Assembly (NCBI GenBank): GCA_963995525.1
Contig: OZ023206.1
Span: forward strand, 30,252,021-30,316,020
DNA length: 64,000 nucleotides
Source: Escarpia spicata
Taxonomy: Eukaryota > Annelida > Polychaeta > Sabellida > Siboglinidae
Direction of reading: 5' to 3'
The notes under the pieces are model-generated. The model was given only the letters and a program-made list of their open reading frames with translations. It did not search any database and had not been told where the DNA came from. Positions 246-62,613 of the stretch are shown piece after piece. Position 1 is the first letter of the stretch; each line of letters opens with the position of its first letter. The translations under genes were made by a program, and so were the position numbers.

Positions 246-304
246 CACGCACACTCATACAAGCTCCTATGACGTCACACTAGGATATATAGACGCGTGA
301 TGTC

Positions 305-5290: not shown

Positions 5291-5299
5291 TATCCGAAG

Positions 5300-5455: not shown

Positions 5456-5459
5456 AGAG

Positions 5460-43002: not shown

Positions 43003-43309
43003 ACTGTCGAATAATGACTACCAGACCTCGTAAATATCCTATATATAGACTGAGGTGTATAAACGCCAGGGAGGTTATATATATATATAGAACGCCAGGG
43101 GGCTCTACCACTTATCACATAACCGCTAGGGGGGTGCATAGCCGCTAGGGGGCAGCAGTGAAATGGCACTGTCTCGCCACCTACTTAACGCAACTCATCA
43201 ATCATAACGTTTTTTATAAGTAAGCTGTCAAACCCACTTAAGATATTTCATTTTTTATAAGTAGATTTTTCGTTGGTGCGGGTCAACTTTCTTGACCTGT
43301 GTTGATCTT

Positions 43310-44726: not shown

Positions 44727-45744
44727 AAATCCTAAGCGTATGTGTCGTTGAATGGGGCTGGAAAATATACAGAGCGTTTCATCGGTCCACTACTTGGCAG
44801 TAGGAAACGGTTATATCAGTAACATGAGGTGCAGTAGGCTACGGGCTCGTCTGTCCAAGTAAACCCGTTCGCATATTATTCTCTAGCGGAATACGCTATA
44901 ATCAGGAAACTCGCCGAGTTTGTATTCTTTTGATGCATTTCGTTTGCGTTCGATTTCGTTTATGTTTGTATTCATTTGTTAAATCTCGGCTTGAGGTAAT
45001 TGTGTTTTTTTTAAGAATTTTCTGAAATTTGTTTACCCAATCACATATGGAAACATGTGCATGCAGTTGCCCAACCGGAGTCGGACCGTTTTCCTTTTTT
45101 AAAGATAGTTACTCGCCGTAGGGGCTACACGCGAATGTCGAGATAAGACCGAGCTTGGTCCCTCAGCCCCCTGTCTCCTCAGCTGGATAGCCCTCCCTCG
45201 GGGGGGGGGGCGAAAGGCACCGCCCTGGGGCATCAGCCTTCTAGTACAAAAGCCTCTGGAGTCCCTAGACTACTGACGTGCCTCTTCGACGCGCCCGTAG
45301 AAATTACCCCACGTCGGGGGAAGCCGAATCGTCAGTGGCCGACCCCCTGCTCGTCACCATCAGGGCAGGGGCATTGGGAGGAGCAACGGCCCCCCACGAA
45401 AGGAAGTGAGCAGCCAGCTCACTTACCTATCCGTTGCCGGATGGGGTACCCGTGAAACCGCACAATGTGAATACCCCCGGAGGGTAAGGGCCGGACTCGT
45501 CAGGTTTGCCAATGGCACTCCACCCGGCCCTGGCAAATGGAGCCATTAGTGAATTCACCCTTCAGCGTCTCTATCCCGCTCCGCAGCCAGCGGAGTGGGA
45601 TCCCGTTCCCCGGTGGAACGAAAACCAAAAACAAAAATGATCACTGGGGGACGGCGGGAGCAGAATAGGCCCCGGGGAGGGGGCGTCCTCTTGAGGACGA
45701 CCTCTCACCTATTCCCGGCAGAGGCAGCCGTTAGTCGAGAGACA
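44727..45744 (+). other. Probable R2 3' untranslated region
   Basis: GC-rich, C/G-run-containing sequence (G10 run at about 45200) with no ORF of note. No 28S downstream sequence is found. Its end is set by the start of the repeat shared with 31126. Confidence 0.4.
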
Positions 45745-46430
45745 GCCTCAAAATGCCTTACTTGCACAACTACGGGTTAGTTTTGTTTTCATTATAAATT
45801 ATTTCTAAGTAACAATGCAAAGCAGCAGTCGTTGCGGGGAGGAGATAAATGTTTACACTTAATTTTCACCATTATTATGTATACAAGAATAACATAACGG
45901 AACAGGCAATGCATTTCTGTTGCGTTCTGCGACTGACCGACATGGTAGGTACGGCCATGCAGCATCGTAGCGTGATACAGATTCATGTGGGTGCTACACA
46001 CACAATGAAACAGCTGTATGCAAAAACGAGTGCCGAAGCGACGATGCCTATAAACGCCGATGCTGTACATCTCTTCAATGAGGCGTATCAACAGGTTGCG
46101 CGTTTAATGAACAAATCTGTATTTGGGTGGGGTCGCTACACTCGACACAGATGTGCTCGAAAAGGACCTTCGGGACATAGCGGACGCGGTTATTCGTTTG
46201 GTGGTTGGCATGCTATCGAGCATACTGGGTGTCTTACACCATGCCATACAACAGGATATGCATGCGCGCTTCATAGAAGCTATGATGTCGAACGGTCTGA
46301 ACATGCATATTGCCGACGTATTTACGACGTACGGTGCCAGCGTAATAGAGAACATGAAAACGCAACATATGTCACCCACCGACGTATCAGCGCATCTCAG
46401 GATCGTTTACTTGATAATTGTTTAAACACA
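45745..46430 (+). pseudogene. Recurrent unidentified gene, third copy (5' truncated)
   Basis: Homology to the gene at 31039 starts inside exon 1 (TGCCTTACTTGCACAACTAC). The following block matches 31144-31840 with a deletion of about 40 bp near 45945 and scattered substitutions. The same frame slip at TTTGGGTGGGG (about 46119-46129) is present. Exon 1's start is replaced by R2-adjacent sequence, so this copy cannot make the full protein. Confidence 0.6.
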
Positions 46431-47038
46431 CAGGAGATGTGCGCAAAAACGTCTTGACTGCCAAGGCAACAGACAAAGAAGTGGAGCAGGAGGTGAAGAT
46501 GTTGTTAAAGTTTGCTACGGAGAGGGATGTCGGCCGGAAGGAGAGAGAAGAGAGGAAGCGAACCGCTGTAATCGCTGTGCCATGAAGGCCACACACGGAA
46601 CTATATATAGGACTAGTTTCTTTATCCAATACTGCAATTTGTATTATTGCTATTTGGTGGGTCTCCCACCGATGTGTGGTTGGTCCCCTCATAATAAATT
46701 CAGCTTTATACAAAGCTTTTACACAAAATACACTTGTCCTGTGTTACTATGCAAACTAGCCATGATTTATAGTCAGTCCGTTCAGTAGATATATCATAAA
46801 ACATCACACTTAAAATACTCTTTCCTTGTGTTTATAAAGTGAAAACAGTTGTATGCACGTATACTAAGAATGGCCATGTGTTACAATATATCAAATGAGC
46901 AGGTGCTTTAGGAAAGGGGTTGAATTGCGCTAAATTATGGTTAGAAAGTAGGTTATACATTAATGTCAGTTTAACGTTACATTTTCGTTAGAAATAAAAA
47001 AGTTAGGAAAACGTTAAGCAAACGACTGAAATAACGTT
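46431..47038. repeat. 3' region of the recurrent gene, third copy, plus subterminal repeats
   Basis: Matches 31849-32420: GAG-rich segment, AATAAA near 46692, then TTAACGTTACATTTTCGTTA-type repeats cut off at about 47038 by gypsy A leader sequence. Confidence 0.65.
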
Positions 47039-47151
47039 ACAAGTTAATTCTCTGGTGAAAGCGAAAAATTGGCGATGTTTATTTTTGGGACACTGAACAG
47101 GGTCCAGGTCAAGACAGCCAGGTTCTGTTATGATTCCTCCCTAGGGAGCAG

Positions 47152-48327
47152 GTGCAGTATTCTACCAGGTCAGAAGTAGACAGGTCTATTCAGGAGAGTA
47201 ATGTTGCAGAGAAGCAGCATGCGTTAGTGATTATGAGGGGTAGAAATGCTGGTCTGGGAGAGAGATTGTCAAAGATGAAATGGCAGGAGGAGCAGTTGAG
47301 ATCGGAGAAGGATCAGTTGACAGCAGAAAATGATCAGTTGACACGGGAAGAAGGTATATTGTTAACGGCAATTAGTAAATAAGTTCAATGGTAGAACTGT
47401 TTCCAGAAACATGTGCAAATCTGAGTGCTAAAAATCGAGTGCAATCACTGTTTGACAACAGCAGTGACACTGTTCAGGTCTTACCTGATCGCAGAAAACA
47501 ATAGTCCAATGCCATGTGATAATGTTGCTACAGTGGGGCAGACCAAGGTAGCATTGGAATCAAGGATGTGTGATACATCAGATAATGCGATGATGTCTGA
47601 TCAAAAGGGCGCTGACATGAAATGTCCTGTTGTCACCCTTGGTTACTGCATCCCCAGAGAGAATCTTCAGTGGTAGTTTGTCAAGAACACCACCAAATGT
47701 TGGTAGGCCAAGTCATGAACCTGTAGACTTTACAGGAGGCGCTTGTGAAACTCCATTTAATATAGGACATGTGGGAAATATGGCTGGGAAGTTGCACCCA
47801 ACAAAATTATCCCACAATCTCATATACCAGCGTTATTTTCATCTTTACCAAACCCCAAGGGGTATGGACAGTCTGCTATCAGGTCAAGAGAAGAAAGGTG
47901 CAGGAAATGACTGGCCAATGTTTAGGGCCTACCATCCTGTTTATGACACAGGCAGGAAGGAGGCTCATTATGGTCAGCATGGGGAGCTTCAGCCAGATGG
48001 CTGGCTGGTTAGTTAATGACCTTTGGGGCCTGCAGACAGGATTATGTAATTGACAACACAGCTGGTCAAGTGGTGTTGCATCTACCCAGTGTTAGGTTCT
48101 CCATGCCAACTACTCGGGTCAAGGCACCAAAACCAAAGAGCCCAGCATTGTATGATGGCAAGAGTAGCTGTCCTGATTACCTGGTTCAATTCAAAATGGT
48201 TTCGGATTTGAACAGGTGGGACGAAGCTACTCGTGCTTTGGAGCTAGCCACCAGCTTACATGGGCAGGCTCAAGGGGTGTTGAGTGACCTTTGTGTCAGT
48301 AACATTGTTACATGGTTTAGATTATAA
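47152..48327 (+). pseudogene. Gypsy A gag remnants
   Basis: A coiled-coil piece (EEQLRSEKDQLTAENDQLTR, about 47286-47345) is followed after stops by the segment homologous to the gag starts at 18711 and 30444 (YQTPRGMDSLLSGQE, about 47836-47890). A capsid-like stretch reads SPALYDGKSSCPDYLVQFKM, then DLNRWDEATRALELATSLHG and QAQGVLSDL (48140-48290), the typical Ty3/gypsy Gag pattern of F-DGK...W..Y...F. The pieces sit in different frames. Structural protein of the element's particle; not functional here. Confidence 0.65.
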
Positions 48328-48330
48328 AAC

Positions 48331-48705
48331 CTGTCTTTGTGGTTTTTCTATTGGCCGTTTAAATTATTATTGGCCTTTTATATTATTACAAAAAAATAAG
48401 TATTTACAACTGAATTAAGGTGTCATGTGCCATTTCACTCTGACTCAGTCAGTTTTTGCCTGTCTAAGACTAAGTGGATTTCTATAGTTTTAAATAGTGG
48501 TTCCCTAATCATGTGGAATGACATGTGTGCCATCATCACAATCTTGCCAATACAGAGTCTAATGGATGGGCAAGCTATATTTAATTTGAGATTGGTGGTA
48601 CACTTACTGTATGCCAAACTGCCACTAACACTCATGTAATGTACTCATTGCATTTTCCATACAAAATTAACAACAATCAGTCTCATCAAAAGATGGCTCA
48701 GTCTC
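48331..48705. other. Spacer without recognisable feature
   Basis: AT-rich sequence between the gag and integrase remnants; protease, RT and RNase H are missing here. Nothing else recognised. Confidence 0.4.
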
Positions 48706-48711
48706 ATCAAA

Positions 48712-48950
48712 AGTAAGATTATGATCCTCAGGGCACCATATGGGAAAGGGAATTCGATGTGGGTGATTTAGTCTATTTTCCACAGTGGAACAAAACAAGA
48801 AGCTTTTACTGGTGTGGAAGGGCCCATTAGAGGTAATATCTAGGCTAGTAGATTGAATATTTGGGAGCATGTCAAACACCATGACAAACTCAACATGTAT
48901 GAGGATTGAGATATTCCACTCTGGGTGAGGCGGACACGACACATACTAAA
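48712..48950 (+). pseudogene. C-terminal remnant of a gypsy integrase
   Basis: In one frame with several stops: EREFDVGDLVYFPQWNKTRS, then after breaks KHHDKLNMYED and LWVRRTR. The GDLV....R...W.GP..V and H.D.L..Y order is the C-terminal GPY/F-type region of Ty3/gypsy integrases. Heavily decayed. Confidence 0.5.
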
Positions 48951-49272
48951 TACACATAGTTAGCTGGAGTGAGGGAATTATTCCACCCCAGCCAAGCAAC
49001 AGTCAATGACCAAGTAACCACCCTAGGTGATCGAATCATCCCAACAATGACCACGTGACGTGGCCACAAGGTTACTCGTCCATCTCGGTTTTAGTAGATC
49101 TCTACTTGCAGATGGAGATGAGCACTTCGGACACGGAGGGGAGCCCTAAGCGTGAAAAGCAGAGGGGAGGCAGGTTGGGTATCGAAGAAAAAAAGAGGAG
49201 ACACCTGCCATGTAGGGGGCAATGCAACGCTAGACAATGTACCACGTAAACAGGGGGTAGTGGCTCAACCAT

Positions 49273-50303
49273 TGTAACAGACCTGCAGTGGCTAATTTAG
49301 TTAATTACTATTACTATTAGTTATCAGAGAAAGACTAGAACAGAAAAACCAGAGTCATGTTATATAAAAGCATTATATAAAAGAATGCTGCACAAGGCAA
49401 GCATATGGTTGCCGTCACTGTGGGCGCGTTTCTAAAGCAACAAGGTTTGAACGATTTGTTTATTTTCGCGTCTGTAGGCGTAGTTCTTGGTGTCTACCAG
49501 AACAGAATGTAGTTGACAGTTAAGAGTCATGACTGGAATTTGGTGCAGACATTGGCCTGACCTTAGATTCACTTCGTGACCATGTCCTGGTTTTAAGATC
49601 GAACCGGAAAGATTAAATTATGCAAATAAATGCAGACCCCCGCAGAACCCCTCACGTGAGTGAGCACCCTCATCCCCATAGTATGACAGCATTAAAAACA
49701 CGCATGCGTAGAGCCATAATTCTACAAATGTCATACTATACGTTTCGATACCTTACGGTTTAAAGACAATTCCTGGATTTGGCTTGAGGCCAAGCCAGTA
49801 TGTTTAAAAGGGAACTATTTTTGGAATTACGAGGAGGGCGGCAATGAACACACACGAAGAGACACGTTGACGCTCTCTACGGGAAACTAGGAAAATGTTC
49901 CCACATTTTAGACTTATCAAAATTTCGTCAAATATAAACCACGGTGGTTTATATATTGCTTTATCGTTCGATCTTCAAAAATCACGGACACTTTAAATAT
50001 AAAATAGAGTTGTACTGTCGGCGCACAACAATGTGCAAACGTTGTATGGACATTGTTGTCTGAAGTTTCTACTGATGAATAAAACATATATATTCGTGAC
50101 GAACCTGGAACGCTTGTTTGTTCAATTCCATTGACAAGCGAATACACCCTTAGCCGTGAGGGGACAATGCATCACTACAGCACGATGTACACGGCTTGGC
50201 GAGCGACATACCCGAGGTAAGGCTCCGGTCTTCTGAAGCCATTGCGTACCGCCCAATTGAAGGAAGGAAGGAAGGAAGACGGAGGGGACAGGACAACTTT
50301 ACA
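49273..50303 (+). repeat. LTR of gypsy family B
   Basis: Starts TGTAACAGACCTGCAGTGGC and ends near TTTACA before the TGGCG primer site. It contains TATATAAAAG (about 49361, with a partial duplication) and AATAAA near 50077. Confidence 0.6.
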
Positions 50304-50387
50304 ACTGGCGAGCGCGCCAGGATCAGTATAAAGAAACAAACGATGACGCAGTCTTACAACTGACGAGTCAACTCGAGATCGACAACG

Positions 50388-50621
50388 ATGTCAAACACTA
50401 CATCGACAACGTCAAAATCTGCTCCGGTGGCAGAGATTCAAGCACCGACGCCCCGTATGATACCTGCCGGCATGGAAGAAGCACCGTGGCCAGAGCACGG
50501 AGCATCGTTTCCCGAGGGAGACTGGCTCGACGAAGACATCGAAGCTTTCGACGAACCAGATCAAGGTCACCGACAAGACATGAACGACTCCGGAACGAGT
50601 GCGGAGAACAAAAAACAGTGA
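50388..50621 (+). CDS. Small leader ORF of gypsy B
   Basis: 77 codons from ATG 50388, 42 bp upstream of the gag ATG. Ser/Thr-rich start, then acidic and proline-containing (EAPWPEHGASFPEGDWLDED). It may be an N-terminal gag segment separated by a frame change, or an upstream ORF. No family recognised. Confidence 0.4.
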   Translation: MSNTTSTTSKSAPVAEIQAPTPRMIPAGMEEAPWPEHGASFPEGDWLDEDIEAFDEPDQGHRQDMNDSGTSAENKKQ

Positions 50622-50663
50622 GTGACAGTCAAACCATATTTGTAACGATCGAACTAAGTAACC

Positions 50664-51632
50664 ATGGATCATAATCAATTTCAAAATCTTACGCAAGGCT
50701 TGGCCGAGTTAGAAACTGAGAGGCGAGCGATACAAGCATCGCGAGAACAGATCCGTGATTTAATCAGACTAACTCAAAATTGTGACGGTTCCACCACGGC
50801 AGCAGTGAGAAATTGGATCCGTGATGTAACATTAGCCTTTAACCAGGTGGGTACAACTCATGTCGTTGAGATAGCTTTAAAAACTGTGTCCGGACCGTTG
50901 AGGTTTGAGTTAGAACGTTACATCGAAGGTGTAATTGCAGCTAATCAGATCGCACGAGCAGCCATTCCTTGGCCTGCTATCAGAGATCACATAGCTGCAC
51001 AATTTCTCAACCTTGATGAGAGCGCAGAACTGCGAGACGAACTGGAAAAACTGTGTCAATCTGCGTATGAACCGACTGCGCAATACGCCAGACGTTTCCG
51101 TGACGTAGCCGACGTGGCTTATCCGATCGGACAGCGTAACGCCGATCAAGAACGCCTCCTGATTAGAAGTTTCGCCCGAGGACTAGTTTCCGACGAACTG
51201 GCAAGGAAGCTCGTCGAACAAACAAATCCGGGAACCATCGAGGAAGCAATTACGGCCGTCACGAGATTTTGTGAGCGAAGTGACGCTTACAAACGACTTG
51301 GACGAGTGGAGGTTCCAATGGAGGTTGGAATTATCAAATCACGAAGAGGTGACATCGAATCGACCAGCCAGATCGACGCCTTGACAGCGACCGTTGCCCG
51401 TCTGTCAACCAAACTCGCGAAACTCGAGATAAACAACCAGGCGACGCGAGCGTCAACAACGCTGAGAGATGACAGGCACCGCCAACGATATACGCGCCCG
51501 GCTGAACGAACATTGCCTCCGCCTGCAAACCCCGCGCGAATGCGACACGTACAGTGTTACCAATGCGGACTCTATGGTCACCTCGTGAGAAACTGTAAAC
51601 AGGAACAGTCCGGCCGATTATATGCAAATTAG
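50664..51632 (+). CDS. Gag polyprotein with CCHC zinc knuckle (gypsy B)
   Basis: 322 codons from ATG 50664. A capsid-like helical region (residues about 45-210) includes WIRDVTLAF, WPAIRDHIAAQFLN, YARRFRDVADVAYP and LIRSFARGLVSDELARKLVE. A coiled segment follows, then a nucleocapsid knuckle CYQCGLYGHLVRNC at residues about 299-312 (C-x2-C-x4-H-x4-C). Gag forms the particle and binds the RNA. The frame is intact and no frameshift into pol is present because pol is deleted. Confidence 0.85.
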   Translation: MDHNQFQNLTQGLAELETERRAIQASREQIRDLIRLTQNCDGSTTAAVRNWIRDVTLAFNQVGTTHVVEIALKTVSGPLRFELERYIEGVIAANQIARAAIPWPAIRDHIAAQFLNLDESAELRDELEKLCQSAYEPTAQYARRFRDVADVAYPIGQRNADQERLLIRSFARGLVSDELARKLVEQTNPGTIEEAITAVTRFCERSDAYKRLGRVEVPMEVGIIKSRRGDIESTSQIDALTATVARLSTKLAKLEINNQATRASTTLRDDRHRQRYTRPAERTLPPPANPARMRHVQCYQCGLYGHLVRNCKQEQSGRLYAN

Positions 51633-51934
51633 TGTGACATAGTCAACCAATGACATCTTTAGTATCAACATGTGCAGAAAAGTGTTATGACTAAGAAAAT
51701 ATATACTTTGATGCAACTAAAGCCAACTATTTTGAACAGCATGGATTTTATAGTTCAATACACTGAACCATTAATTATCCGTGCCTGCATTCTGCACTCA
51801 CACTGCTTGCATGCTGTGACATATTTGTTTACATATTTCTCTCAAATGACAACAATCTTTGTTTTAATTTAGAGTACATATTGTTTATTACTGTGAAACT
51901 CATATTTGCTGTATTTGCATGTGTATTTTTGCAG

Positions 51935-52447
51935 GGATTGCATAATAATCAAGAATTTCAAAACAAATTGAACTTGACACAGGCTGGCAAAGCATACACG
52001 TTTGCTCAAGTCAGCACAAGAGACTACAAAAAACAAACGGTTTCTAATAACAACTATGGAAACAGAAATTGTCAAAACTGGTCCATTTGAGGAAGACCTC
52101 CCAGAAGTGCCTGACAGCCAGAAGGCATGCGGTGAGATCGCGGAGGTATCCATCCAATCGCAATCCTTGTGTCCAAGTTGTGATGCAGAGATCACAGTGG
52201 CACAAGGTAAAATGTGCACACATTTAACAAACTGATGCAGTGCATGGTCAAGGCTAAAGCTTCACGTGTACGGGATGTTAAAACCGGCACTTGCCACTTG
52301 GTTGGCCAAGACGTTGATCTTCACATAAAACTTCCAGGTGCAATGCTGAGGGCATTCACAGAGGATTTAGAGGAGCGTCTACTCATTCAGGACTCTGTAA
52401 CCATCAGTTATAACGAGGACAATCTAGCTACATCCATTACCATTTAA
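51935..52447 (+). pseudogene. OB-fold/zinc-ribbon protein exons (RPA-like), frameshifted
   Basis: An acceptor TTTTTGCAG ends at 51933. The exon reads LTQAGKAYTFAQVSTRDYKK, then a one-base slip at about 52038, then EDLPEVPDSQKACGEIAEVS and LCPSCDAEI with a donor-like CAAG|GTAAAA near 52206. A final segment LMQCMVKAKASRVRD...HIKLPGAMLRAFTEDL ends at TAA 52445-52447, with AATAAA at 52650. The CxxC pair and beta-rich blocks suggest an OB-fold single-strand-binding protein of a type I have seen repeatedly in invertebrate transposon-associated genes. Assignment tentative. Confidence 0.4.
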
Positions 52448-53205
52448 TATGTATGACCATACCCCTATTGACTTTGTCATTTTGGTTTATTTTATACTGT
52501 TTTCTACAAATTATCTGATTATTATATAGTAATCCGATTATGAAATTACCAGATCAGTAATCAATAGAGGTTGACAATCAGTATTATGTCATTCATTGCT
52601 ACTGTTTTAAAGTCAAAATGCATGCTATGTATATGTACCTCGTGAGCAAATAAAGTTTTAACATAGTTCATCTCTTTCTTCTTTCCATTCTAGGCAGAGG
52701 GTGGTAATGGCAAAATGAGAACAGAATCGTGTGCACATTTAGTTAAACAACCTTTAACCTACATGCGAGAAAACTTCTGCATCAGTCACATTTGCACCGG
52801 AAGGTCATCTGTTTAAGATATGAAGATGGCTATGTGTTGCTGCCAATGCTTCATGGGGAAGAGCAACAGTGATCACATCCAACTATATGCATGTCCATAA
52901 ATTAATCCCTTTCATTTGTATGGCTTGAAGTCGTGGTTGCCAACTTTTTATTTACCAGGTAACATATACGTGGCATTCTGTATCACATCAGCAGATTGTC
53001 CATGTACTGTGTCTTCACATCTTTTGTTATTTGTAGCTTAGGCTAATAAATGTGTTAACATTATATTATCAAGTTTCGACCACCTGTACATTGTTGAGTG
53101 AGTTAGTCTGAATTTGTCCAAGTAACAATCGGTTCAAACTGTGATACCCTAATACTTATTGGTTTTTTTTACAAGCAGCAATGTGTGCTACTTATTTTTC
53201 CCTAG
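52448..53205. other. Intronic or spacer sequence
   Basis: AT-rich, with no supported exon. AATAAA occurs at 52650 and near 53045. Confidence 0.4.
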
Positions 53206-53357
53206 GTATGCTTTGCCAACTACCATTGGATCATGCTGCCCATCTGCCACCAGAACCACTGGTTCCTGCTGGTGGCAAACACACAGGACAAGACAATGGC
53301 AGTGCTGGACTCACTGCCACAGGAGACAAGACGAAACAAGTGTGTCGCCCTCTGGCA
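53206..53357 (+). CDS. C48 (Ulp1-like) cysteine protease, exon with catalytic His and Asp
   Basis: A 152-bp exon between the acceptor TTTTTCCCTAG (ending 53205) and the donor GGCA|GTAAGT. The open frame reads NYHWIMLPICHQNHWFLLVA and KTMAVLDSLPQETRRNK. The HW pair after a hydrophobic strand and the LDSL strand with Asp are the His and Asp of the Ulp1/SENP catalytic triad, a family that removes SUMO-type modifiers. The partner exon with Gln and Cys lies at 53791. Found beside Kolobok-like transposase exons, it is probably transposon-encoded. Confidence 0.6.
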
Positions 53358-53790
53358 GTAAGTGTTACCTGCCACCGAACCAGTGCGACCATTCCTACTG
53401 CCTGTGTGGAATACAATTACTTTCTCATAGTTTCTTGCCCTATGTTGGTTAACAACTGCTATAACACCACTTATTGATTATGTGTGTCTTTACACATGTC
53501 CATGTTTTTATTGGTGTAGTAAAACAGTGGAGACAGGGCTTGTTGCCTACTTCAGTGTTTATGGTAACAAGCCTTTCAGTCATGCCTGCTGTTGGTTTAG
53601 TGATATGTTTTATGCAGGAGTACATAGGTTATTTTAACATGCTAAAGTTTCAATACACTTTGCAAATAATTGTCATATCTGGATAGTATGGATATTGTTT
53701 CTGCATTTGTAAGTCCATTATTTTTAAGAGATGCCTGAATTAAGGTGCAAAATGACTGATAAATGTGAACGGATTCTCTCCTTCTTCCAG

Positions 53791-53937
53791 GATGTACACG
53801 CAAGGGAGAAACACAAAGCTGGGTTTGCCATTGGAGCATTGGAAAGCCATGACCGCAAGATGTGGTCAGCAGGAAGACAGCCACAGTTGTGGTGTGTTCA
53901 TAATTGGAGCATCATTTGAGAAACAATTACCTCCCAG
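53791..53937 (+). CDS. C48 (Ulp1-like) cysteine protease, exon with catalytic Gln and Cys
   Basis: The exon follows the acceptor CTTCTTCCAG (ending 53790) and ends before GTAGGT. Its frame contains LPLEHWKAMTARCGQQEDSH directly followed by SCGVFI, the Q..(N/D)CGVF signature of C48 peptidases that positions the oxyanion Gln and nucleophile Cys (here Ser-Cys instead of Asp-Cys). With the exon at 53206 all four active-site residues are represented. Splice phase between the two exons was not proven. Confidence 0.6.
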
Positions 53938-53999
53938 TAGGTTTTACCATTAATTGCAAGTTGCATGGAAGGAAGCCCTGTGGATGGCAAAATTGTAGG

Positions 54000-54776
54000 G
54001 AGGGGCACTGAAGAGGAAAAAGACTTTGTTGCCTGACAGTGTTCTGACAATACAGCCACAGCTACATGCTGTCAGAAGCCAACTGAAACGAGCAGGTTTA
54101 GCTGACACAACTAGTCCCACTCATCAGCCGGAAACGCAACCCAAACGAAGCAGAGCGTCTGCCAAACTAGAAATGGCCTGGGTAAGAGAAATTACTTTAC
54201 ATGACACACCATTAGCATTATGTCAATAATTATTTTAAATGACACTGACATCTATTCCCGGTTTGGTAATATTGACATTGACAAATATCATGCTAAAAAT
54301 ATTTTATGTTCTTCCTAATCAATTGTACACATTGTTCTATGATTAATAATGGCTTTATTCACAGACATCGTTGTTGTGGTTCTATAATTTCTAATAACAA
54401 CAACAAAAAGTTGTAGACCTACTAATCGATGAACGCTCCACATTCCCAACATTAACACCATGTTTATTTCTTTCACCAGTTGATGCAAGACAACAAACTT
54501 CCGGCAGATACAGTCGCAGCTGAGCCACATCAACCACCCTCTGACCACACCCAAGGCATGGCTGAGCCACATCAACCACCCTCTGACCACACCCAAGGCA
54601 TGGCTGAGCCACATCAACCACCCTCTGACCACACCCAAGGCATGGCTGAGCCACATCAACCACCCTCTGACCACACCCAAGGCTTGGCTGAGCCACATCA
54701 ACGACCCTCTGACCACACCCAAGGCGTGGCTTGTCAAACCGATGTCAAACAGACAGTAGATCGAGACATCCATTGA
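54000..54776 (+). pseudogene. Exons of a transposon-type gene with a 14-residue repeat
   Basis: A segment LLPDSVLTIQPQLHAVRSQL to the donor TGG|GTAAGA (54180) is followed after an acceptor TTTCACCAG (54479) by a frame that repeats AEPHQPPSDHTQG with Met or similar five times (54520-54730, 42-bp units) and stops at 54774. It is likely a linker region of the downstream transposase-like protein. No catalytic motif. Confidence 0.4.
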
Positions 54777-54852
54777 GAATTCTATGAACTTTGATCATGT
54801 CTCCTCTTTCTGTATGGCAAGCTCAAATGTTCATACTTTGCTTTTCAAACAG

Positions 54853-55735
54853 GTATAAATGCTGTCATGAAAGTGATGGTGGAGACGGCCACACAGACCA
54901 ACCCTGTCACTATGACCGACATTGTGCCAGTCGTGACGAGCACTCCGAAGAAAGTGAGGATTCCAGCTCCAGGGGTAGACCCAGATGCCATCAGCTCCAT
55001 CAGCCCCATCAAATCCTGTTGAGGCACCAAGGACCCAAACTATAAGACATCAGACTGGTCCTTTGCTGATGCTGAAAAGGAAGATATTGGGGATGAGCTG
55101 GCAACTGAAGATGAAGATATAAGTGAGTGTTGTATTGATGTTGTTTCAGAGAAAAAATATATAGTCTTCCACAACAAACTCATGGAGATGTTCAAGTGCT
55201 GCCCCATTTGTGCTTGTCCCAGCCGCGGACAAGTAGTCAACTGTACGAACAGTGGCTACGGCATGATGGTGAAGATCAGTGATGCAAGCTTGCGAGAACT
55301 GCTCTTACACAAGGACATCGGACAGTCAGCAATCCACAGGCCAGATGCCGCTTGGTAACCTGATGTTGTCAGCAGCAGTGCTCTTCTCAGGCTGCCAAAT
55401 TCTTCGCTTGTTCAGCATTTGTAATATCCAGTGCTTCAGCCGATCGACCTACCAGCGCCACCAGAACAACTACGTCATCCCCACAGTGATCAATGGCTGG
55501 AAGGAGGAGCAAGCGGTCATCATGGGACAATTGAAGGCGGTCTGCAGCATGCGGGGGGACTGCCGAAATGACAGCCCAGGACACTCAGCAAAGTATGGCA
55601 CATACACCCTCATTGAGCAGACAACCAAGAAGGTCACTGACCTACAGCTGGTCCAGGAAATTAACCAAGAAAATCGTGTAAATAAGATATTTGTCTGTCA
55701 TGAATGCCAAGACATTAACGTAATTTAAATATATA
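54853..55735 (+). pseudogene. Kolobok-like transposase, N-terminal and central exons
   Basis: The acceptor AAACAG ends at 54852; the frame INAVMKVMVETATQTNPVTM runs, with a TGA at 55020, to a donor at GATATAA|GTGAGT (about 55121). The next piece, from about 55150, reads KLMEMFKCCPICACPSRGQV (a Cys-rich knuckle). After a frame slip near 55335, GNLMLSAAVLFSGCQILRLF, RQNNYVIPT-like and SMRGDCRNDSPGHSAKYGTY follow to about 55670. The GD.R.DSPG..AKYGTY block is characteristic of a widespread invertebrate transposase that I associate with Kolobok elements. Broken in several places. Confidence 0.5.
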
Positions 55736-56031
55736 TACATTCAACAGCAGATATATGGAATATGCCCATAACGAATCGATGATGTGAACAAAAATGCAGG
55801 TCTGGACCCTTATTATTTTATTTTATGTTGAACACTACGAGAGTAAAATGTTTCTCATTACTAGATTGAACACTTGATTGTAAGCTCCTTATTGATTTCA
55901 AGCCTATTTCTGTTAGTATGACAGAGTTGATGGTAAGCTTCAGATATGATCACTTTCAGATATAATTAATAGATTCATTATATCCAAGATATACAAGCTA
56001 TTATTTATGTGTGGCATTTGTTGTACTTTAG

Positions 56032-57460
56032 AGCAATGAAGCCGGCAACAGCAATGCTTGTGAGCTGCTCGGCTTCCGACGGAGCATGTCGTATGTGACA
56101 GATACAGAGGGTTTGTCGGTGAAGAGCCTTGTGACAGATCGCCACAAGTCAATTGCTGCCTTCATCAGAGATGACTTGAAGATTCACAACCCACGTTAGC
56201 GCAAACCTTGAGCACTACAATGATGTGTGGCACACTGCTAAAGGTATCTACTGGTCTAATTGTGCTATTCCCTAGTTGGTTGGCATTAATTTTACATACT
56301 TAACAAATTTTTGTTTTATTTTGAGATTTTGTTTTGAGACAAAAATGAAGATGTCACAGTTAACCAGTAGGGATTCATCTGATTACATATAGGTATCTGT
56401 AAAATCTTGAACAATGCAACTTGAAATATACAAATTCAATCTTAGGACCAGTAACTAACAAGTTACCCTAGATATTCAACGGATTTATTATCTCTTCATC
56501 AGGCTTGGGGAAGAAGATGAAGAAACTCGGTAACTTGGCAGAGAGTGAAGATATGGCAGAAATCTATTCTGAACCACATGTACTGCTGCCAAAGCTCCTG
56601 CTGTGAACAGCCATGTACCAGGTAGTTGTCTCTTGACAATCATATCCACGATGAGCATGAGTCTCACGGACTCTCAGCTCTACTACCCACACTGTGACCA
56701 TGCTCACCTCATCTATGATTGAGAGAAAGAGTGGCTCATCCGAGGTATTTATATTATTATCTGTCCTCGATTCAAAAATCCCAATAACTTTTTTTAATAA
56801 TTCTACGAATGAAAAACTATGTCTGCATTTTAATGAGGCCACATATCTATTTCTCATCCCGTGGAACTGGCCAGCATTGAGGGGCAATATAGAAAAGCAG
56901 AGATGAAAAACAATATATTATTACTGTTTTATACACTGAAATAGACCACAGCTCACAGGTTAGCATAGATCAACAGTGTTCCTGCAATTTATTGCAATCT
57001 TGTCATTTTAGGTACACCCAGGAGCATCAGGCTATCGGATTTGATAACATCAGATGCAGTAGTGAAAGATGTTCAGAAGCTGTCACCAGATTTCCAGACA
57101 TCTAGCCTGGAGGCATTCCATAGGCTGGTAATCTGCTTCGCCCCCAAGCACACACACTTTGGTTGGCTTGGGCAAATGGCCAGGTATGTTTATGTGTCAT
57201 TATTTGAAGTTATGTTTTGTCAGATCATATTAAGGTTTTCAGATGAGTGTGTTATTCATGTAAGGAAATGTTAACATTAATGTGTATCTGTATTCCCGTA
57301 TGCAGAGGCCATCAGCATTGGAGTACCACCTCACAAGATACGCCAGTGCCATGTCGATGCTTTCAGAAAGGCAGTATTAGCAGAGTTCCTGCAATACAAG
57401 AAACAGTAATGGCACAAGCAGTCACTGAATGTATACTTTAGTTTGTCATCTTAATATTTT
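56032..57460 (+). pseudogene. Kolobok-like transposase, C-terminal exons
   Basis: Exon from acceptor GTACTTTAG (56031): SNEAGNSNACELLGFRRSMS and LVTDRHKSIAAFIRDDLKIH, ending in stops near 56200. A piece at 56503-56600 reads GLGKKMKKLGNLAESED; an exon at 57012-57182 (acceptor TCATTTTAG, donor AG|GTATGT) reads LSPDFQTSSLEAFHRLVICF and KHTHFGWLGQMAR; a last piece after 57306 ends near 57410. TDRH..I and LE.FH....ApK..h: these follow the same family's order (DDE-type catalysis is presumed). Stops make it non-functional. The interval 56201-56502 and 56606-57011 is intronic or decayed. Confidence 0.5.
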
Positions 57461-57542
57461 AATCCCACCTCATCCTACTATTTGATGGCTCTTAGTGTAA
57501 TTTATTATTTAAATGATTTTATTTCATATTATATGTTTAAGG

Positions 57543-57791
57543 TGTAGTGCGGAGCAGCACTGTAATTAGGTCACACCCAAGATAAGTACGCACAACCGCA
57601 TTACACCCTAATAATACACCCCCCACACATACACCCTATAAATACCCGTGCTACACAATAGCCAGGAGTCCGTATTGCCGCCGCCGCCGCCGTAAAGCAC
57701 AGCCCCTCATCAAGGAGACGCTCCCGTCGGCCTTCGGCCTCCGCTGCAGGCTACACCATTGTGCATGCCCAAGTAAGTGCCGCGCACAATA
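57543..57791 (+). repeat. 5' LTR of element C
   Basis: Begins TGTAGTGCGGAGCAGCACTG with an inner palindrome and ends GCGCACAATA. TATAAATACC lies near 57649; a GCC run (57677-57691) is three bases longer than in the 3' LTR. Confidence 0.9.
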
Positions 57792-57792
57792 T

Positions 57793-57810
57793 TGGCGCTG
57801 CGAGCAGGGT
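57793..57810 (+). other. Primer-binding site of element C
   Basis: TGGCGCTGCGAGCAGGGT begins one base after the LTR, where the tRNA primer of minus-strand synthesis anneals. The cognate tRNA was not identified. Confidence 0.6.
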
Positions 57811-58569
57811 ATATTTCTGCTAGCGAATCTGCGTTATAGTTCCATGTTAAACAATTTATATTCTACGCGCAATTAACCAGGAGAAACCTGTCGGTTTTCA
57901 AGCGTTAATTGTTTAAACATTTACGCGCCAATTTTCCTGTGCGTATGATAGGAATCTGCCGGTTCTGTCTACGCATAATATGAAGTAATTATACGTGATA
58001 TATGGTCTGCTAATTATCATATAGCAATATTCAACCGCTTATTTGAAAATTATTTGAAAGTTCTACAATTACAATTTGACGTCGGGACAACCAGTTTACG
58101 GGCGTGGTCTCTGGCAGCATACAACCAGCGTCGCCGTCGGTTGCTACGCGACTGCTAGCTGACTCAAACTGGGTTTAACCCTTTGATCACGCCGTTGTGT
58201 TTACATGAACCACGGATAGCTTTATACTTGAATTCTTTCTTAAGTTTTGTTAAGAGTTTATCGTGTTTATGACATTCTTGTTAATCATAAATCAAACTAT
58301 ATTTTTGGTTTACTTCCTGAACTTACTAATTGGGTATTATCGCCGACGTAATTGTAATGTATCTATCGCTTGATACTGTTTACTGTTCTCCCTTAAACGT
58401 GTTGGTAATTGTGCAATTATATTGATTTTCTAAAATATCTGAGCTACACTGTTCAGCTTGATTTGAATTACTTAATTTTTGAATCAACAGTGCCACTAAC
58501 GTCGTTAAATAGTAGGCATTACTTTGTATACATAGTTTGGCATTTACACTTACATTTACACGCATCTAG
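57811..58569 (+). other. 5' leader of element C
   Basis: About 760 bp, AT-rich and without ORFs of note; a likely location of packaging signals, none of which can be pointed to. Confidence 0.5.
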
Positions 58570-59493
58570 ATGTCAACATGCTCTCTGAATCTCAAAAAGG
58601 ACAAAATAGAAATTTCTGACTTAGTGACAGTCACGGATAGTACTACCACCTTTTGGGAAAACTTACTGGAAACAGGACGGATTAGTCTAGAGGAGCCTCC
58701 AATGGAAGCGACTGTTTCGCTAGAATGTGATTCTGAGGTAGAGATGTTAAAAGATAAACTGGAAAGGATGGAAGCACAATATCATGCGCAACTTGATGAG
58801 AGGGATTGCAAAATCAAAGAATATGAAAGAGAGAGATCAAACAGGGTCAGGTTTGGTATTGACGAATATGAATTCATGAGGGTGAGGGAAGTAAAGAGAA
58901 GAGAACTGGAAGAAAGAATGAAAAGGGAGAAGGAAGAATGGGATCACACAATGAATAGACGCAGGTCACAGGAAATAGGTGGTGAAATGAGATGGGAAAT
59001 GTATGAGAGTACGAACATGGAGTATAAGAGCCATTCCAAATCAATGGGTCATCCTTTTTATGACAAACCTCTCCTTGATGCGCATCCAAAGGATGGCATA
59101 TACAGCTACGGTCCCTCGCGGTTGTTGGGACAAGAAGCACGCAGGAAGGATACCCCACTTCAACCTACTAGCAACACAAATCTTCCAGTCGGTGTGAAAC
59201 GCGAACCAATGGGAGGAATCGACACCACACCAAAAACCGATGGGCATCACACACACGACACAACCGATGGGCATCACATCACACACATGACAAAACCAAT
59301 GGACCCAATTTACCTATTCTCAGGAACATCCACAGACTGGGACACATTTCTACACCTGTTTAAGCGTGCTGCAAAATATTATCACTGGAGTATTTACCAA
59401 AAACTACAGAGGCTAAAGGAATGCTTGCGCGACGAAGCACTTGATTACATCCGGACCCGGACCCGTTCCCGCAAGACTTGCAGCGATTATTGA
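58570..59493 (+). CDS. Gag of LTR element C, N-terminal part up to an in-frame TGA
   Basis: 307 codons from ATG 58570. Residues about 55-145 form a charged coiled coil (VEMLKDKLERMEAQYHAQLD...; VREVKRRELEERMKREKEEW). A linker includes LPVGVKREP and a His-rich stretch (DGHHTHDTTDGHHITHMTK). The capsid begins with YLFSGTSTDWDTFLHLFKRA and YYHWSIYQKLQRLKECLRDE, the F.G...W..F...F......W....Kl..L...L.G.A pattern of Ty3/gypsy Gag. TGA 59491-59493 interrupts; the capsid homology continues in the same frame immediately after, so this stop falls in the middle of the domain. Confidence 0.8.
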   Translation: MSTCSLNLKKDKIEISDLVTVTDSTTTFWENLLETGRISLEEPPMEATVSLECDSEVEMLKDKLERMEAQYHAQLDERDCKIKEYERERSNRVRFGIDEYEFMRVREVKRRELEERMKREKEEWDHTMNRRRSQEIGGEMRWEMYESTNMEYKSHSKSMGHPFYDKPLLDAHPKDGIYSYGPSRLLGQEARRKDTPLQPTSNTNLPVGVKREPMGGIDTTPKTDGHHTHDTTDGHHITHMTKPMDPIYLFSGTSTDWDTFLHLFKRAAKYYHWSIYQKLQRLKECLRDEALDYIRTRTRSRKTCSDY

Positions 59494-61680
59494 AGGCTCA
59501 TGAAACGCCTGAAGAGCAAATTTGAAACAAAAGAAAATCCAAGCCTTGTGCGTCGCAATCTCCAAGATATGAAGCAGGAAGTCGGCGAATGTTTGGAAGA
59601 CTTCGCTGATCGTGTTCACCATGCCGTCAAAAGGAGATATAGAGGGACAGGAAACAAAGACGTAACTAAATATGCCGCAAAGCTGTTCCTCAAGGGTGTT
59701 AGGGAGAACGAAATAGCTTTAGCAGCTTGTGACAAACATCCAAAGTCGATTAGGAAAGCTCTAAAAGATATGAACAAGATGAATCGAAAGCTTCTCAGAC
59801 GCCGTACGGAAAAGGAGGAATCGGATCGTGTGATGAAGATGACAAATTTGACAATGGAAGACTACGAGTGTACGCGTCCATACACATCGTATGAGTATAC
59901 CTACAACGATCAATCTCTAGTCTACACTTATGACGAGAAATCATCCTGCGATGACCATTCCACAAGTGGAATGTATGGGCCCTCCTCTGCGCTAGGAAAT
60001 CGTCCATCTAGCACTAGCATCAGTAGTCAAAATGCTGTACTAGGTAGAAGGCTGTCAATGTCAGCGGGACATGTAGCGTCCGAAGACGAAACGTTACGCT
60101 CCACATATGTTTCACCTCACGCTGTCGGTCGCCATAAAACAACAAGTCCGTTAAATATTGACAAATGTCAGGAACCAGTCGGTTCCGGCACTATTAAACA
60201 AAAGAATTGTGAGCGACATGATCCTGAACTAGTTCACACATACACTCCAGTCGGCGTGAAACGTGAACTAGTCCCACAGAAAGACAGCTACCTAGATTGT
60301 CTCACGTTACGTCAGGAAAACAGATACATGCCCAAAACAGACAGAGAAAAGATCGACCGCGTACGGTCTGTAACTGCAGTCATCGCTCCAGGCGACTTGA
60401 CAGAGACAATGACGTCACTCGCTAGAACACATGGTAACCCTTACTCCAACATAGTCACACACATTGACCCAGGACGAGACAACATGGGACACACTGGAGC
60501 ACCACCTGTGGATGATACAGCTGATATCGCGTCCCACTTCCCGGAACGAATAACGCCAACTGCGGAGGTGTCGCCGGACGACGGGGACAGCAAGACAACC
60601 GATACCAGACCGCACAATGACAACTTGAGTATGTCTCGGGCGAACTCAGTTAGTCGCACGATGGAGGCGTGTGTATCATCAGCCCAATTCTGGTGTCAAC
60701 TGGAGGGTGACGAGACTGCATTGACTCGATTGTCGGAGCAGCTCAATGACGCGCCTCTCGGTGAGACAGGTAACAACTGGGAGCTGAGAAACAAACCAGA
60801 ATTCTCGGAAGAAACTGAAGACAATGACAGCGGCGACAACAACAGTGACAATGCGCAAGTTGCTAACGCGGACGAGTTTCTGCGGGACGACAGGTTGACC
60901 CATTTGCCTGTTGAAATGCACGATTACTATGCATCTCAAACGTTTGTCAGGGAGGAGAGTTGGTGTAGTGGTCAGGATGACAAATCTAGAAGGGAGAGGA
61001 GACGTTGTTGTGACCATATCACTTGTATCACCAGGGTTGACACAGGCACGGGTAATGTGTCCATGGTATATATCGACAACGGCGACTTCTCTGTGCAATT
61101 GCTACACATGGCGTCCGCCACATTGCCAAATGAAGCGTTGGCATGTCGATTCGACGGAAATGCCGCAAAGATGACTGACGTCATTGGCGGGTCAGTGCCT
61201 CAGCAAAAAATGGGTACTACTCGGTTGAGAGGTGCCATCAACACGTGTGAGAGAACGACTGTCGACTGTAGTCTCTATGACAAAGAGTCGGATGTTGTGA
61301 GGTACAAGGGTACACCATTAAAGCCAGATGAGATGCACGAAGTCCATGTGTCCTCACCCGTATCGCCACACAACTTCCGGTGCCTACAAACAAGACTTTC
61401 AATGATGGAACTTCCCCTACTGACGGACAAAATCGCTAACGATGACAATTGCGGAGCGCTGATTAGCATGCCTTGCGAAACACAGTTCCCTTATGACGAG
61501 AAATGGTGCACGGCAGCGATGGTGACCACGACTGTTGCAAGTAGCAGCAGCGTTGCTGTCTGCTTTGTCGGTTACGACAAAATGGAGAATGTACACAGTT
61601 CAAGGGTCAGGATGATCCGTCAGTCTTGTTCCACCGAAGGCTGCCCATGCAGGCATTCGTGGAATATGATGATTGAGTAA
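59494..61680 (+). CDS. Gag C-terminus fused to two Tudor-like domains (element C)
   Basis: The frame continues from the TGA; first ATG is 59500 (726 codons). The capsid C-terminal half is at residues 1-100 (SLVRRNLQDMKQEVGECLED, YAAKLFLKGVRENEIALAAC). A low-complexity middle has a second VGVKREL motif. The C-terminal 340 residues look like extended Tudor domains: first VSSAQFWCQL (about residue 391), then VSMVYIDNGDFSVQLLHM with LPNEALACRF (520-555); second VSPHNFRCLQTRLSMMELPL (about 618), then FPYDEKWCTAAMV and SVAVCFVGYDKMENVHSSRV (660-705). Tudor domains bind methylated arginines, for example on Piwi proteins. Several aromatic-cage positions deviate (WC for WY, DN for DY). No pol motifs follow. 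Confidence 0.7.
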   Translation, partial: RLMKRLKSKFETKENPSLVRRNLQDMKQEVGECLEDFADRVHHAVKRRYRGTGNKDVTKYAAKLFLKGVRENEIALAACDKHPKSIRKALKDMNKMNRKLLRRRTEKEESDRVMKMTNLTMEDYECTRPYTSYEYTYNDQSLVYTYDEKSSCDDHSTSGMYGPSSALGNRPSSTSISSQNAVLGRRLSMSAGHVASEDETLRSTYVSPHAVGRHKTTSPLNIDKCQEPVGSGTIKQKNCERHDPELVHTYTPVGVKRELVPQKDSYLDCLTLRQENRYMPKTDREKIDRVRSVTAVIAPGDLTETMTSLARTHGNPYSNIVTHIDPGRDNMGHTGAPPVDDTADIASHFPERITPTAEVSPDDGDSKTTDTRPHNDNLSMSRANSVSRTMEACVSSAQFWCQLEGDETALTRLSEQLNDAPLGETGNNWELRNKPEFSEETEDNDSGDNNSDNAQVANADEFLRDDRLTHLPVEMHDYYASQTFVREESWCSGQDDKSRRERRRCCDHITCITRVDTGTGNVSMVYIDNGDFSVQLLHMASATLPNEALACRFDGNAAKMTDVIGGSVPQQKMGTTRLRGAINTCERTTVDCSLYDKESDVVRYKGTPLKPDEMHEVHVSSPVSPHNFRCLQTRLSMMELPLLTDKIANDDNCGALISMPCETQFPYDEKWCTAAMVTTTVASSSSVAVCFVGYDKMENVHSSRVRMIRQSCSTEGCPCRHSWNMMIE

Positions 61681-62351
61681 TTCCTGTTCAACTGGCCGTA
61701 GGATATTCTGACACGCATACACACGCGCACAAACACAATCTAGTAGCCTAGGACGCTTGTCGGTGTCCGGGTTCTAGAACATACATATTTTCGTGTATAT
61801 ATACTCACGTAGTATGCGAAGCATGAGGCACTCGTCGGTGCTCGGGACGTACTCGTAGTATATGGGACGTACTCACGTAGTATATGATGCCTGAGGCACT
61901 TTTCGGTGCCCGGGACGTACTCACGTAGTACATGATGCCTGAGACACCTGTCGGTGTCCGGGGTCTAGGGTCTACATATAATTTGTGTATAGATTCTTAT
62001 AATGATTGGGAGCGAAGTTTCATTTTCAATAAGTTCGTTTTGCTTTATTATACAAATGTTAAAATAATGGTGGTTGGGTTTAATTAAATGTATTTATAAT
62101 GAAATACCCTAAATAGTTAAATATTACGTCGGTGTTTGGGTTTAGTTAAAGTGATAATATGGAAACACCCTTTAAAAATATATTTAAGATAATTATCAAG
62201 CTATATTTGTTTAATTGTCACATTGAGTGAATTGTCTTTGTGTAGGGTGTATGCACGGTCTTGGGTAATAATCAAATGTTTTGATTATAATTACTCGATA
62301 ATTACATAATATGACGGATATATTTCCTGCAATACATCCCGTTCCTTTTAT
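61681..62351 (+). other. 3' untranslated region of element C with about 47-bp repeats
   Basis: Between 61745 and 61975 units containing GTACTCACGTAGTATATGAT and GCCTGAGGCACTTTTCGGTG recur about four times; GAGGCAC..TCGGTGCCC can form a small hairpin. The remainder is AT-rich. Confidence 0.7.
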
Positions 62352-62363
62352 GATGGGGAGGAA
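62352..62363 (+). other. Polypurine tract of element C
   Basis: GATGGGGAGGAA directly abuts the 3' LTR, the expected primer site for plus-strand synthesis. Confidence 0.65.
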
Positions 62364-62609
62364 TGTAGTGCGGAGCAGCACTGTAATTAGGTCACACCCA
62401 AGATAAGTACGCACAACCGCATTACACCCTAACAATACACCCCCCACACATACACCCTATAAATACCCGTGCTACACAATAGCCAGGAGTCCGTATTGCC
62501 GCCGCCGCCGTGAAGCACAGCCCCTCATCGAGGAGACGCTCCCGTCGGCCTTCGGCCTCCGCTGCGGGCTACACCATTGTGCATGCCCAAGTAAGTGCCG
62601 CGCACAATA
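62364..62609 (+). repeat. 3' LTR of element C
   Basis: 246 bp, about 98 percent identical to 57543-57791, followed by the AAGG duplication. Confidence 0.9.
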
Positions 62610-62613
62610 AAGG

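What the first reader, a model, noticed from the sequence alone, without database searches (positions are those of the whole stretch)
57543..62609. LTR retrotransposon that encodes Gag plus Tudor-like domains in place of Pol
Clear LTRs, primer site, purine tract and AAGG duplication bracket one long frame. Its first half is Ty3/gypsy-type Gag, and its last about 340 residues read as two extended Tudor domains (strand motifs VSMVYIDNGD and VAVCFVGYDK, each preceded by the FWCQL/FRCLQ-type lead and followed by LP..A..C in the first). Known: Tudor proteins scaffold the piRNA pathway by binding methylated Piwi. Inference: a retrotransposon with its own Tudor module could sit in germ granules, mask or decoy piRNA factors, or use them for particle assembly. 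I know of no described family with this architecture.
Basis: partly seen in the sequence, partly recalled or inferred. Interest (0 to 1): 0.88.

Follow-up and report, generated by a model that had tools for sequence, protein, structure and literature searches.

The report
Jumping gene carrying captured Tudor domains
This animal genome holds dozens of copies of an LTR retrotransposon that lacks its own enzymes and instead fuses its particle protein to a piece of a host Tudor gene, the kind of gene animals use to organise their defence against such elements.

Summary
Architecture confirmed and extended. 57543-62609 is an LTR element (AAGG duplication, primer site, purine tract) coding for Gag followed by two extended-Tudor-like domains, without Pol. 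The window frame is not unbroken: one TGA lies inside Gag. It belongs to a family: the Tudor part matches 46 places in this genome; Gag lies just upstream in at least 40 of 46, and the 12 best-matching loci all have Gag before it and the family LTR after it. The Tudor part comes from a host multi-Tudor gene: it is 44-57% identical to particular host exons and reads across a predicted host intron, so a spliced mRNA was probably captured. The likely helper is a 9.7-kb Gag-Pol element with 95-97% identical LTRs, which itself carries a TatD-nuclease ORF, intact in 17 of 18 loci. Selection on recent copies is not shown and function is untested. My searches found no published Gag-Tudor element.

The parts
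57539..57542 (+). target-site duplication AAGG, left copy
   Evidence: read directly; matches 62610-62613
57543..57791 (+). 5' LTR (249 bp)
   Evidence: direct repeat of 62364-62609, 4 substitutions and 3 gap columns; 40 LTR matches scored of 268 candidates in the genome
57793..57809 (+). primer-binding-site-like TGGCGCTGCGAGCAGGG next to the 5' LTR
   Evidence: sequence; complementarity to a tRNA 3' end is inferred from the TGG start, tRNA identity not tested
57792..58569 (+). 5' leader, about 93% identical to the leader of the 9.7-kb TatD-bearing family
58570..59493 (+). Gag part 1 (307 aa, ends at TGA 59491-59493): N-terminal part 79% aa identical to helper Gag, then first part of the capsid region
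59494..60660 (+). Gag part 2: rest of the capsid region (56% aa identity to helper Gag over 91 aa) and linker; Pfam reported no CCHC knuckle
60661..61680 (+). Tudor part (339 aa), two eTudor-like units, the second cut short; captured from a host multi-Tudor gene
61681..62363 (+). 3' untranslated part with short tandem repeats; pieces 84-89% identical to the TatD family's
62350..62363 (+). polypurine-rich tract ATGATGGGGAGGAA
   Evidence: sequence
62364..62609 (+). 3' LTR (246 bp)
62610..62613 (+). target-site duplication AAGG, right copy

Best explanation
A non-autonomous LTR retrotransposon family. An ancestor of Ty3/gypsy type captured, by reverse transcription of a spliced mRNA, a stretch of a host multi-Tudor gene and fused it in frame to the end of Gag; Pol is absent. 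Its RNA is most likely packaged, copied and integrated in trans by the 9.7-kb Gag-Pol-TatD family, which has 95-97% identical LTRs, a 93% identical leader and a related Gag. The Gag-Tudor protein probably co-assembles with helper Gag and puts Tudor modules on or in the particle. Because both methyl-arginine cages are lost, the modules most likely act as cage-independent protein-binding modules, either taking Gag and element RNA into germ granules or competing with the host Tudor scaffold there. Shown: architecture, family, host origin of the Tudor part, shared LTR and leader with a Pol-bearing family. Well supported: capture from a spliced mRNA (the host intron is predicted from its splice signals, no transcript seen). 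Inferred: trans-mobilisation, co-assembly. Conjecture: the Tudor function.
For: LTR, TSD and ORF anatomy. Tudor part at 46 sites; Gag directly upstream in 40 of 46; 12 of 12 best loci, the window included, with Gag upstream and family LTR downstream. Four sites lie in open frames of 1020-1070 aa. Host gene at C4:59.495-59.505 Mb: Pfam TUDOR 517.9 bits, 5 stretches in one open frame, and 107.4 bits in the cognate exon of domain 2; 57% identity over 37 aa, 44% over 124 columns. The predicted host intron between donor AG|GTAAGT (L051:347/348) and acceptor CACCAG|GTACAC (853/854) is absent from the element, which reads straight across. Helper: LTR 95-97%, 24 of 40 LTR matches forming 12 pairs 9.3-9.6 kb apart; leader 93%; Gag N part 79%; protease, RT, RNase H and integrase domains in that order. 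Retention: against the host exons 0.71 and 0.79 of synonymous sites differ, but only 0.31 and 0.23 of nonsynonymous sites; in codons 1-315 no nonsense among variants shared by two or more of 25 copies versus 11 among singletons.
Against: No expression or small-RNA data. Among copies of the Tudor part, unweighted counts hint at mild constraint (pooled dN/dS 0.56-0.71; shared and singleton variants 0.63 and 0.71, p 0.017 and 0.004), but the nonsynonymous fraction equals the neutral expectation once transitions are weighted (0.698 and 0.723 observed, 0.717 expected), so current selection is not shown. Window versus L016 gives 5 synonymous and 25 nonsynonymous changes in the second Gag piece. In the four frames of 1020-1070 aa the frame ends before codon 339 of the Tudor part (stop at 301 or 321, or a frame break near 270). 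A stop at codon 321 is shared by 9 of 26 copies. The cage is lost, so no known ligand follows. The capsid region is far more diverged from helper Gag (dS 0.85-2.7) than the N part (0.25), so co-assembly is uncertain. The constraint argument includes the host branch, rests on near-saturated synonymous sites in short exons and fails if the donor was an old paralogue.
Confidence: 0.6

Rival explanations
1. Passive passenger: the host Tudor piece was picked up by template switching and spread because LTRs, leader and Gag packaging signals suffice for mobilisation; the Tudor part does nothing.
For: No selection signal among copies beyond the transition-weighted neutral expectation; methyl-arginine cage lost in all 26 copies aligned; L016 lost most of the Tudor part and still has two LTRs and a CTAG duplication, though the deletion may postdate insertion; the frame ends at codon 321 in 9 of 26 copies and at 340 in others.
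Against: Four sites in open frames of 1020-1070 aa; no nonsense among shared variants in codons 1-315; amino acids kept while synonymous sites are near saturation against the host gene; 46 sites share it.
Confidence: 0.3
2. RNA-level attack, as proposed for Drosophila TART-A and nxf2 (PMC7785250, abstract seen): captured host sequence yields small RNAs that silence the host Tudor gene.
For: The captured gene is of the piRNA-scaffold kind; a published precedent exists for a TE carrying a piece of a piRNA-pathway gene.
Against: The element's Tudor DNA and the fetched host pieces (L049-L051) share no exact stretch longer than 14 bases in sense and 11 in antisense; similarity is about 75-85% in short patches only. 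Only part of the host gene was fetched.
Confidence: 0.03
3. Tudor similarity is chance; the region is degenerate Pol or filler.
For: Single-sequence hits were weak and the structure prediction failed.
Against: Exon-by-exon homology to a host gene with strong TUDOR matches, and reading across a predicted host exon junction.
Confidence: 0.01
4. A domesticated Gag-Tudor host gene rather than a mobile family.
For: Long open frame; Gag genes are often domesticated (recalled).
Against: 46 dispersed sites, family LTR next to 12 of 12 loci examined, target-site duplications AAGG and CTAG at the two copies where both ends were read.
Confidence: 0.03

Closest known systems
TR-GAG and other Gag-only non-autonomous LTR retrotransposons of plants (search listing; details recalled)
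   Same: LTRs, primer site, purine tract, gag but no pol, presumed trans-mobilisation by a related autonomous family
   Different: Gag here is fused to domains captured from a host gene; animal host
Bdelloid rotifer LTR retrotransposons with captured ORF3 (GDSL esterase, DEDDy exonuclease; PMC5408684, abstract and sections 3.3 and 4 read)
   Same: LTR elements that take up non-envelope cellular ORFs; the TatD nuclease ORF3 of the helper family is the same kind of thing
   Different: Those are third ORFs after Pol; the Tudor part is fused to Gag and Pol is absent. No Tudor or TatD in the sections read
Chromodomain-bearing LTR elements (named as accessory domain in PMC6338049, passages read)
   Same: A reader-type domain in an LTR element
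   Different: Chromodomain sits at the integrase end of Pol (recalled); here the domain sits on Gag and there is no Pol
Drosophila TART-A with captured nxf2 (PMC7785250, abstract read)
   Same: A retroelement holding a piece of a piRNA-pathway gene
   Different: TART-A is proposed to act through antisense piRNAs; here the piece is coding, in frame, and too diverged for that
Host eTudor scaffolds such as TDRD1, TDRKH, Vreteno, Veneno
   Same: Homologous domains (for the host cognate); Tudor domains without a full cage and cage-independent binding are reported (PMC10711660 and PMC6411831, passages read)
   Different: Mobile, Gag-fused, DYGN lost in both domains

Membership tests
LTR retrotransposon | paired LTRs, target-site duplication, primer site and purine tract | tested here: met
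   second copy L016 with LTR pair and CTAG duplication. tRNA match of the primer site not tested
Ty3/gypsy (Metaviridae) | Pol in order protease-RT-RNase H-integrase | tested here: not met
   no Pol in the window element; met in the family sharing its LTR and leader. Filed only as a derivative
Ty3/gypsy (Metaviridae) | Gag of retrotransposon type | tested here: met
   N part 79% and capsid region 52-56% aa identity to helper Gag, which has Retrotrans_gag E 5.6e-5 (23.7 bits, cut-off 24.1) and a CCHC knuckle E 3.5e-7; window Gag alone only E 0.29
non-autonomous Gag-only LTR element | gag present, pol absent, related autonomous partner in the genome | tested here: met
non-autonomous Gag-only LTR element | mobilisation in trans by the partner | not testable with these tools
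   inferred from shared LTR, primer site and leader
extended Tudor domain | sequence homology to Tudor domains | tested here: met
   first domain by its lead and C-terminal end against host exons, not by Pfam, its core only weakly
extended Tudor domain | barrel plus OB-fold structure | tested here: inconclusive
   single-sequence AlphaFold2 mean pLDDT 31
sDMA-reading Tudor domain | aromatic cage and asparagine (WY..., DYGN) | tested here: not met
   DYGN in 0 of 26 aligned copies in either domain, and WC for WY in domain 2 in 24 of 26 (the other two: a stop there, L055; misaligned, L057); host exon has NWYRA and VDYGN

The most novel reading that the evidence does not exclude
A two-part selfish system: a Gag-Pol-TatD helper and a Gag-Tudor partner whose captured, cage-less host Tudor module puts particles into, or jams, the host's own anti-transposon germ granules, that is, a transposon-encoded counter-defence made from the defence's scaffold protein.
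Probability: 0.25. Interest if true: 0.93.

Novelty: new variant of a known kind. Interest (0 to 1): 0.8.

Why it matters
Multi-Tudor proteins of this kind are described as animal-only and tied almost exclusively to the piRNA pathway that silences retrotransposons (PMC12147562, passages read). A transposon that has taken such a scaffold, fused it to its particle protein and spread to dozens of places makes a direct test possible of whether animal retroelements fight or exploit germ granules with captured host proteins, as plant elements do with encoded anti-silencing factors (recalled; a title naming such a factor was seen in a reference list). The missing intron gives a clear record of how a retroelement can take up a host gene.

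Tried and rejected
Considered and rejected: chance Tudor similarity (host exons settle it for domain 2 and the lead of domain 1); degenerate Pol or ORF3 (the Tudor part has no significant match in helper Gag or in the TatD ORF, and no DNA match in the helper pieces); a one-off insertion into this copy (46 sites); RNA-level targeting of the host gene.

Led nowhere: the first protein search, with the Tudor region scored inside the 726-aa frame, found nothing at E up to 1; viral contigs had no relative; NCBIfam and PHROGs had nothing relevant; single-sequence structure prediction failed, so no fold search was run. P0096, a 212-aa protein of unnamed source on a 983-kb contig, is 36% identical to the Tudor part (E 1.4e-6); its long matches in this genome are 39-43% identical, shorter ones up to 57%, among them a host exon. 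So a relative probably exists in another genome; whether it is an element or a host gene is open. Pfam found no TUDOR in it.

Dropped rows: L057 (misaligned) left out of the variant count, 25 of 26 copies used, and L016 was not among the 26; two host-gene groups and two marginal rows left out of 50 groups to give 46 sites; L003, L004, L006 and L008 hold partial overlaps of TatD ORFs and were not counted among the 18. Searches of one genome score only the best candidates, so the 46 sites are a lower bound too.
Full report
Observation. AAGG precedes the 5' LTR and follows the 3' LTR; the LTRs (249 and 246 bp) differ by 4 substitutions and 3 gap columns. A primer-site-like sequence follows the 5' LTR and a purine tract precedes the 3' LTR. 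The coding frame runs from 58570 to 61680, but in this copy a TGA at 59491-59493 splits it into 307 and 726 aa, so 'one long frame' is not right for the window copy.

Tudor identity. From single sequences the evidence was only suggestive: Pfam TUDOR 22.6 bits, E 1.2e-4, against a cut-off of 23; second domain alone E 0.0038, first domain alone nothing; the best solved-structure match of the second domain, not significant at E 1, is TDRD1 in the matching register; the structure prediction was useless. The genome search settled it. Besides element copies, the Tudor part matches a locus at C4:59.495-59.505 Mb: 48% over residues 211-326 and 58% over residues 4-36 in that call. That locus is a host multi-Tudor gene: one open frame there holds five TUDOR stretches (517.9 bits), and the three cognate pieces score E 6.5e-31, 3.2e-8 and 7.2e-6. 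The cognate host domain also matches solved TDRKH, TDRD1 and Drosophila Tudor structures. Pairwise, the element's second domain is 44% identical to the host exon over 124 columns. The first domain matches host sequence in its lead (57% over 37 aa) and at its C-terminal end; its core aligns weakly (24%, E 0.031).

Capture from spliced mRNA. In the host, the exon ending ...DKESEGLR is followed by GTAAGT (L051:348 on), and the next exon, reading on as YTCTPLKEGDKFEVHV, is preceded by CACCAG (ending at 853); this predicts an intron of 506 bases. No transcript was seen. The element reads DKESDVVRYKGTPLKPDEMHEVHV without interruption. The simplest explanation is capture of a processed host transcript during reverse transcription. 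The direction host to element follows from the host gene's further Tudor repeats and its introns.

A family. The 115 matches group into 50 sites; without two host-gene groups and two marginal rows, 46 remain. The 12 loci around the best matches, the window included, all have Gag directly upstream and the family LTR downstream. In the listing, which was cut off and of which I used 67 of 160 matches, Gag lies within 2 kb upstream on the same strand in 40 of the 46 sites, within 100 bases in 37. Four sites lie in open frames of 1020-1070 aa, but in these the frame ends before codon 339 of the Tudor part (stop at 301 or 321, or a break near 270); a stop at 321 is shared by 9 of 26 aligned copies and may be the normal end in one subfamily. 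L016, a second copy with a CTAG duplication, is about 97% identical in Gag and 98% in the 3' untranslated part, and has lost Tudor codons 1 to about 258 by a deletion of about 810 bases. Matches range from 99% to under 60% identity, so the fusion is not new.

The probable helper. The window LTR is 95-97% identical to 38 of the other 38 scored LTR matches outside the element; 24 of all 40 form 12 pairs spaced 9.3-9.6 kb apart. The three of these elements fetched as internal pieces have a Gag frame of 674 or 671 codons, an overlapping Pol frame and a 526-codon third ORF. In the one scanned, Gag has a CCHC knuckle, Pol has protease, RT, RNase H and integrase in that order, and the third ORF a TatD nuclease domain, E 8.5e-47. 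That ORF3 is intact in 17 of 18 loci where it was covered in full, with five conserved motifs (metal-ligand role recalled) in all 17. The Gag-Tudor element shares LTR, leader (93%) and the N part of Gag (79% aa); its capsid region is much more diverged, which points to a mosaic origin. It has no Pol. Trans-mobilisation by the TatD family is the natural inference but is not shown.

What the Tudor part may do. eTudor domains with an aromatic cage and an asparagine read dimethyl-arginine on PIWI proteins, and others bind proteins without it (PMC10711660 and PMC6411831, passages read). In the element the second domain has WC and GYDK where the host exon has WY and DYGN, and the first has DNGD where the host has YGN. 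None of 26 aligned copies shows DYGN in either domain (one, L057, is misaligned). So the cage was probably lost before the family spread, and reading methylated PIWI is unlikely. Against the host exons, 0.71 and 0.79 of synonymous sites differ but only 0.31 and 0.23 of nonsynonymous sites; unless the donor was an old paralogue, this suggests that the Tudor part was constrained for a long time after capture. Among copies the picture is weaker. Pooled dN/dS is 0.56 (young), 0.71 (old) and 0.65 (between), and unweighted tests give p 0.017 and 0.004, but with transitions weighted the nonsynonymous fraction equals the neutral expectation. Window against L016 shows 5 synonymous and 25 nonsynonymous changes in the second Gag piece. 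In codons 1-315, variants shared by two or more of 25 copies include no nonsense change, against 11 among singletons. I therefore hold a function for the Tudor part as more likely than not only over the longer term, and its nature (cage-independent scaffold or decoy in germ granules) as conjecture. RNA-level targeting of the host gene is unlikely: the longest exact match to the fetched host DNA is 14 bases in sense and 11 in antisense.

Literature. Searches for Tudor with LTR retrotransposon, gag and gypsy (15 of 15 listed), for six direct phrases (none), for captured host genes (8 of 71 listed) and for anti-silencing with piRNA and Tudor (10 of 11 listed) showed no Gag-Tudor element; searches for TatD with retrotransposon terms (15 of 42 listed, none, 8 of 8) showed no TatD-bearing LTR element. 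I judged by titles and starts of abstracts. The library is open-access only, so this is not proof of absence. Nearest precedents: bdelloid LTR elements with captured enzymatic ORF3s (PMC5408684, abstract and two sections read), Gag-only plant elements (search listing), and TART-A with captured nxf2 (PMC7785250, abstract read).

Verdict. Real, well supported as an architecture and as a family; new variant of a known kind (non-autonomous LTR retrotransposon with captured host domains). The piRNA link rests on the identity of the captured gene, not on any functional test.

Noticed in passing
L010:2453-4030 and other loci of the genome: A 9.7-kb Ty3/gypsy-type family with a third ORF encoding a TatD nuclease; intact in 17 of 18 loci, 98-100% identical. 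Searches showed no paper on a TatD-bearing LTR retrotransposon. A protein 70% identical over 60% of it (P0002) exists in another source.
   Followed up: partly
G000:C4:59494800-59505600 (L049-L051): Host gene with a long open frame holding five Tudor stretches and further Tudor exons downstream; probable donor gene.
   Followed up: partly
P0096: 212-aa protein on a 983-kb contig of unnamed source, 36% identical to the element's Tudor part; its protein runs across the place of the host exon junction, but whether its gene has an intron there is unknown. May be a Tudor retrocopy in a related species.
   Followed up: partly
L016 (C2:48624500-48634400, minus strand): Second Gag-Tudor copy that lost about 810 bases, most of the Tudor part, yet keeps both LTRs and a CTAG duplication.
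   Followed up: yes
loci L037-L048: In several copies the Tudor part is 97-99% identical to the window's while the 3' untranslated part and LTR are only 84-93%: LTR/UTR subfamilies joined to the same coding part, a sign of template switching.
   Followed up: partly
window 42547-43017, minus strand: 157-aa ORF with a NADAR domain (E 8.7e-26); one TatD protein (P0013) also carries PF08719 (NADAR).
   Followed up: no
window 50664-51629: Another retrotransposon Gag ORF with a weak CCHC knuckle match, without direct repeats of 100 bases or more in 44000-57540.
   Followed up: partly
window 81-3763 and 6338-7935: A 1250-bp unit repeated three times, each with the same 211-aa ORF, and a 65-bp tandem array; neighbouring ORFs at 3899-6408 look like DNA-virus or Polinton genes to the eye, but Pfam found nothing in the three pieces scanned.
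   Followed up: no
window 31217-31870 and 45849-46457: Two very similar ORFs of 217 and 202 aa (compared by eye), probably copies of an unrelated repeat.
   Followed up: no
L026 (C1:65729000-65738900): TatD-family pieces with LTRs on both strands close together; a rearranged cluster.
   Followed up: no
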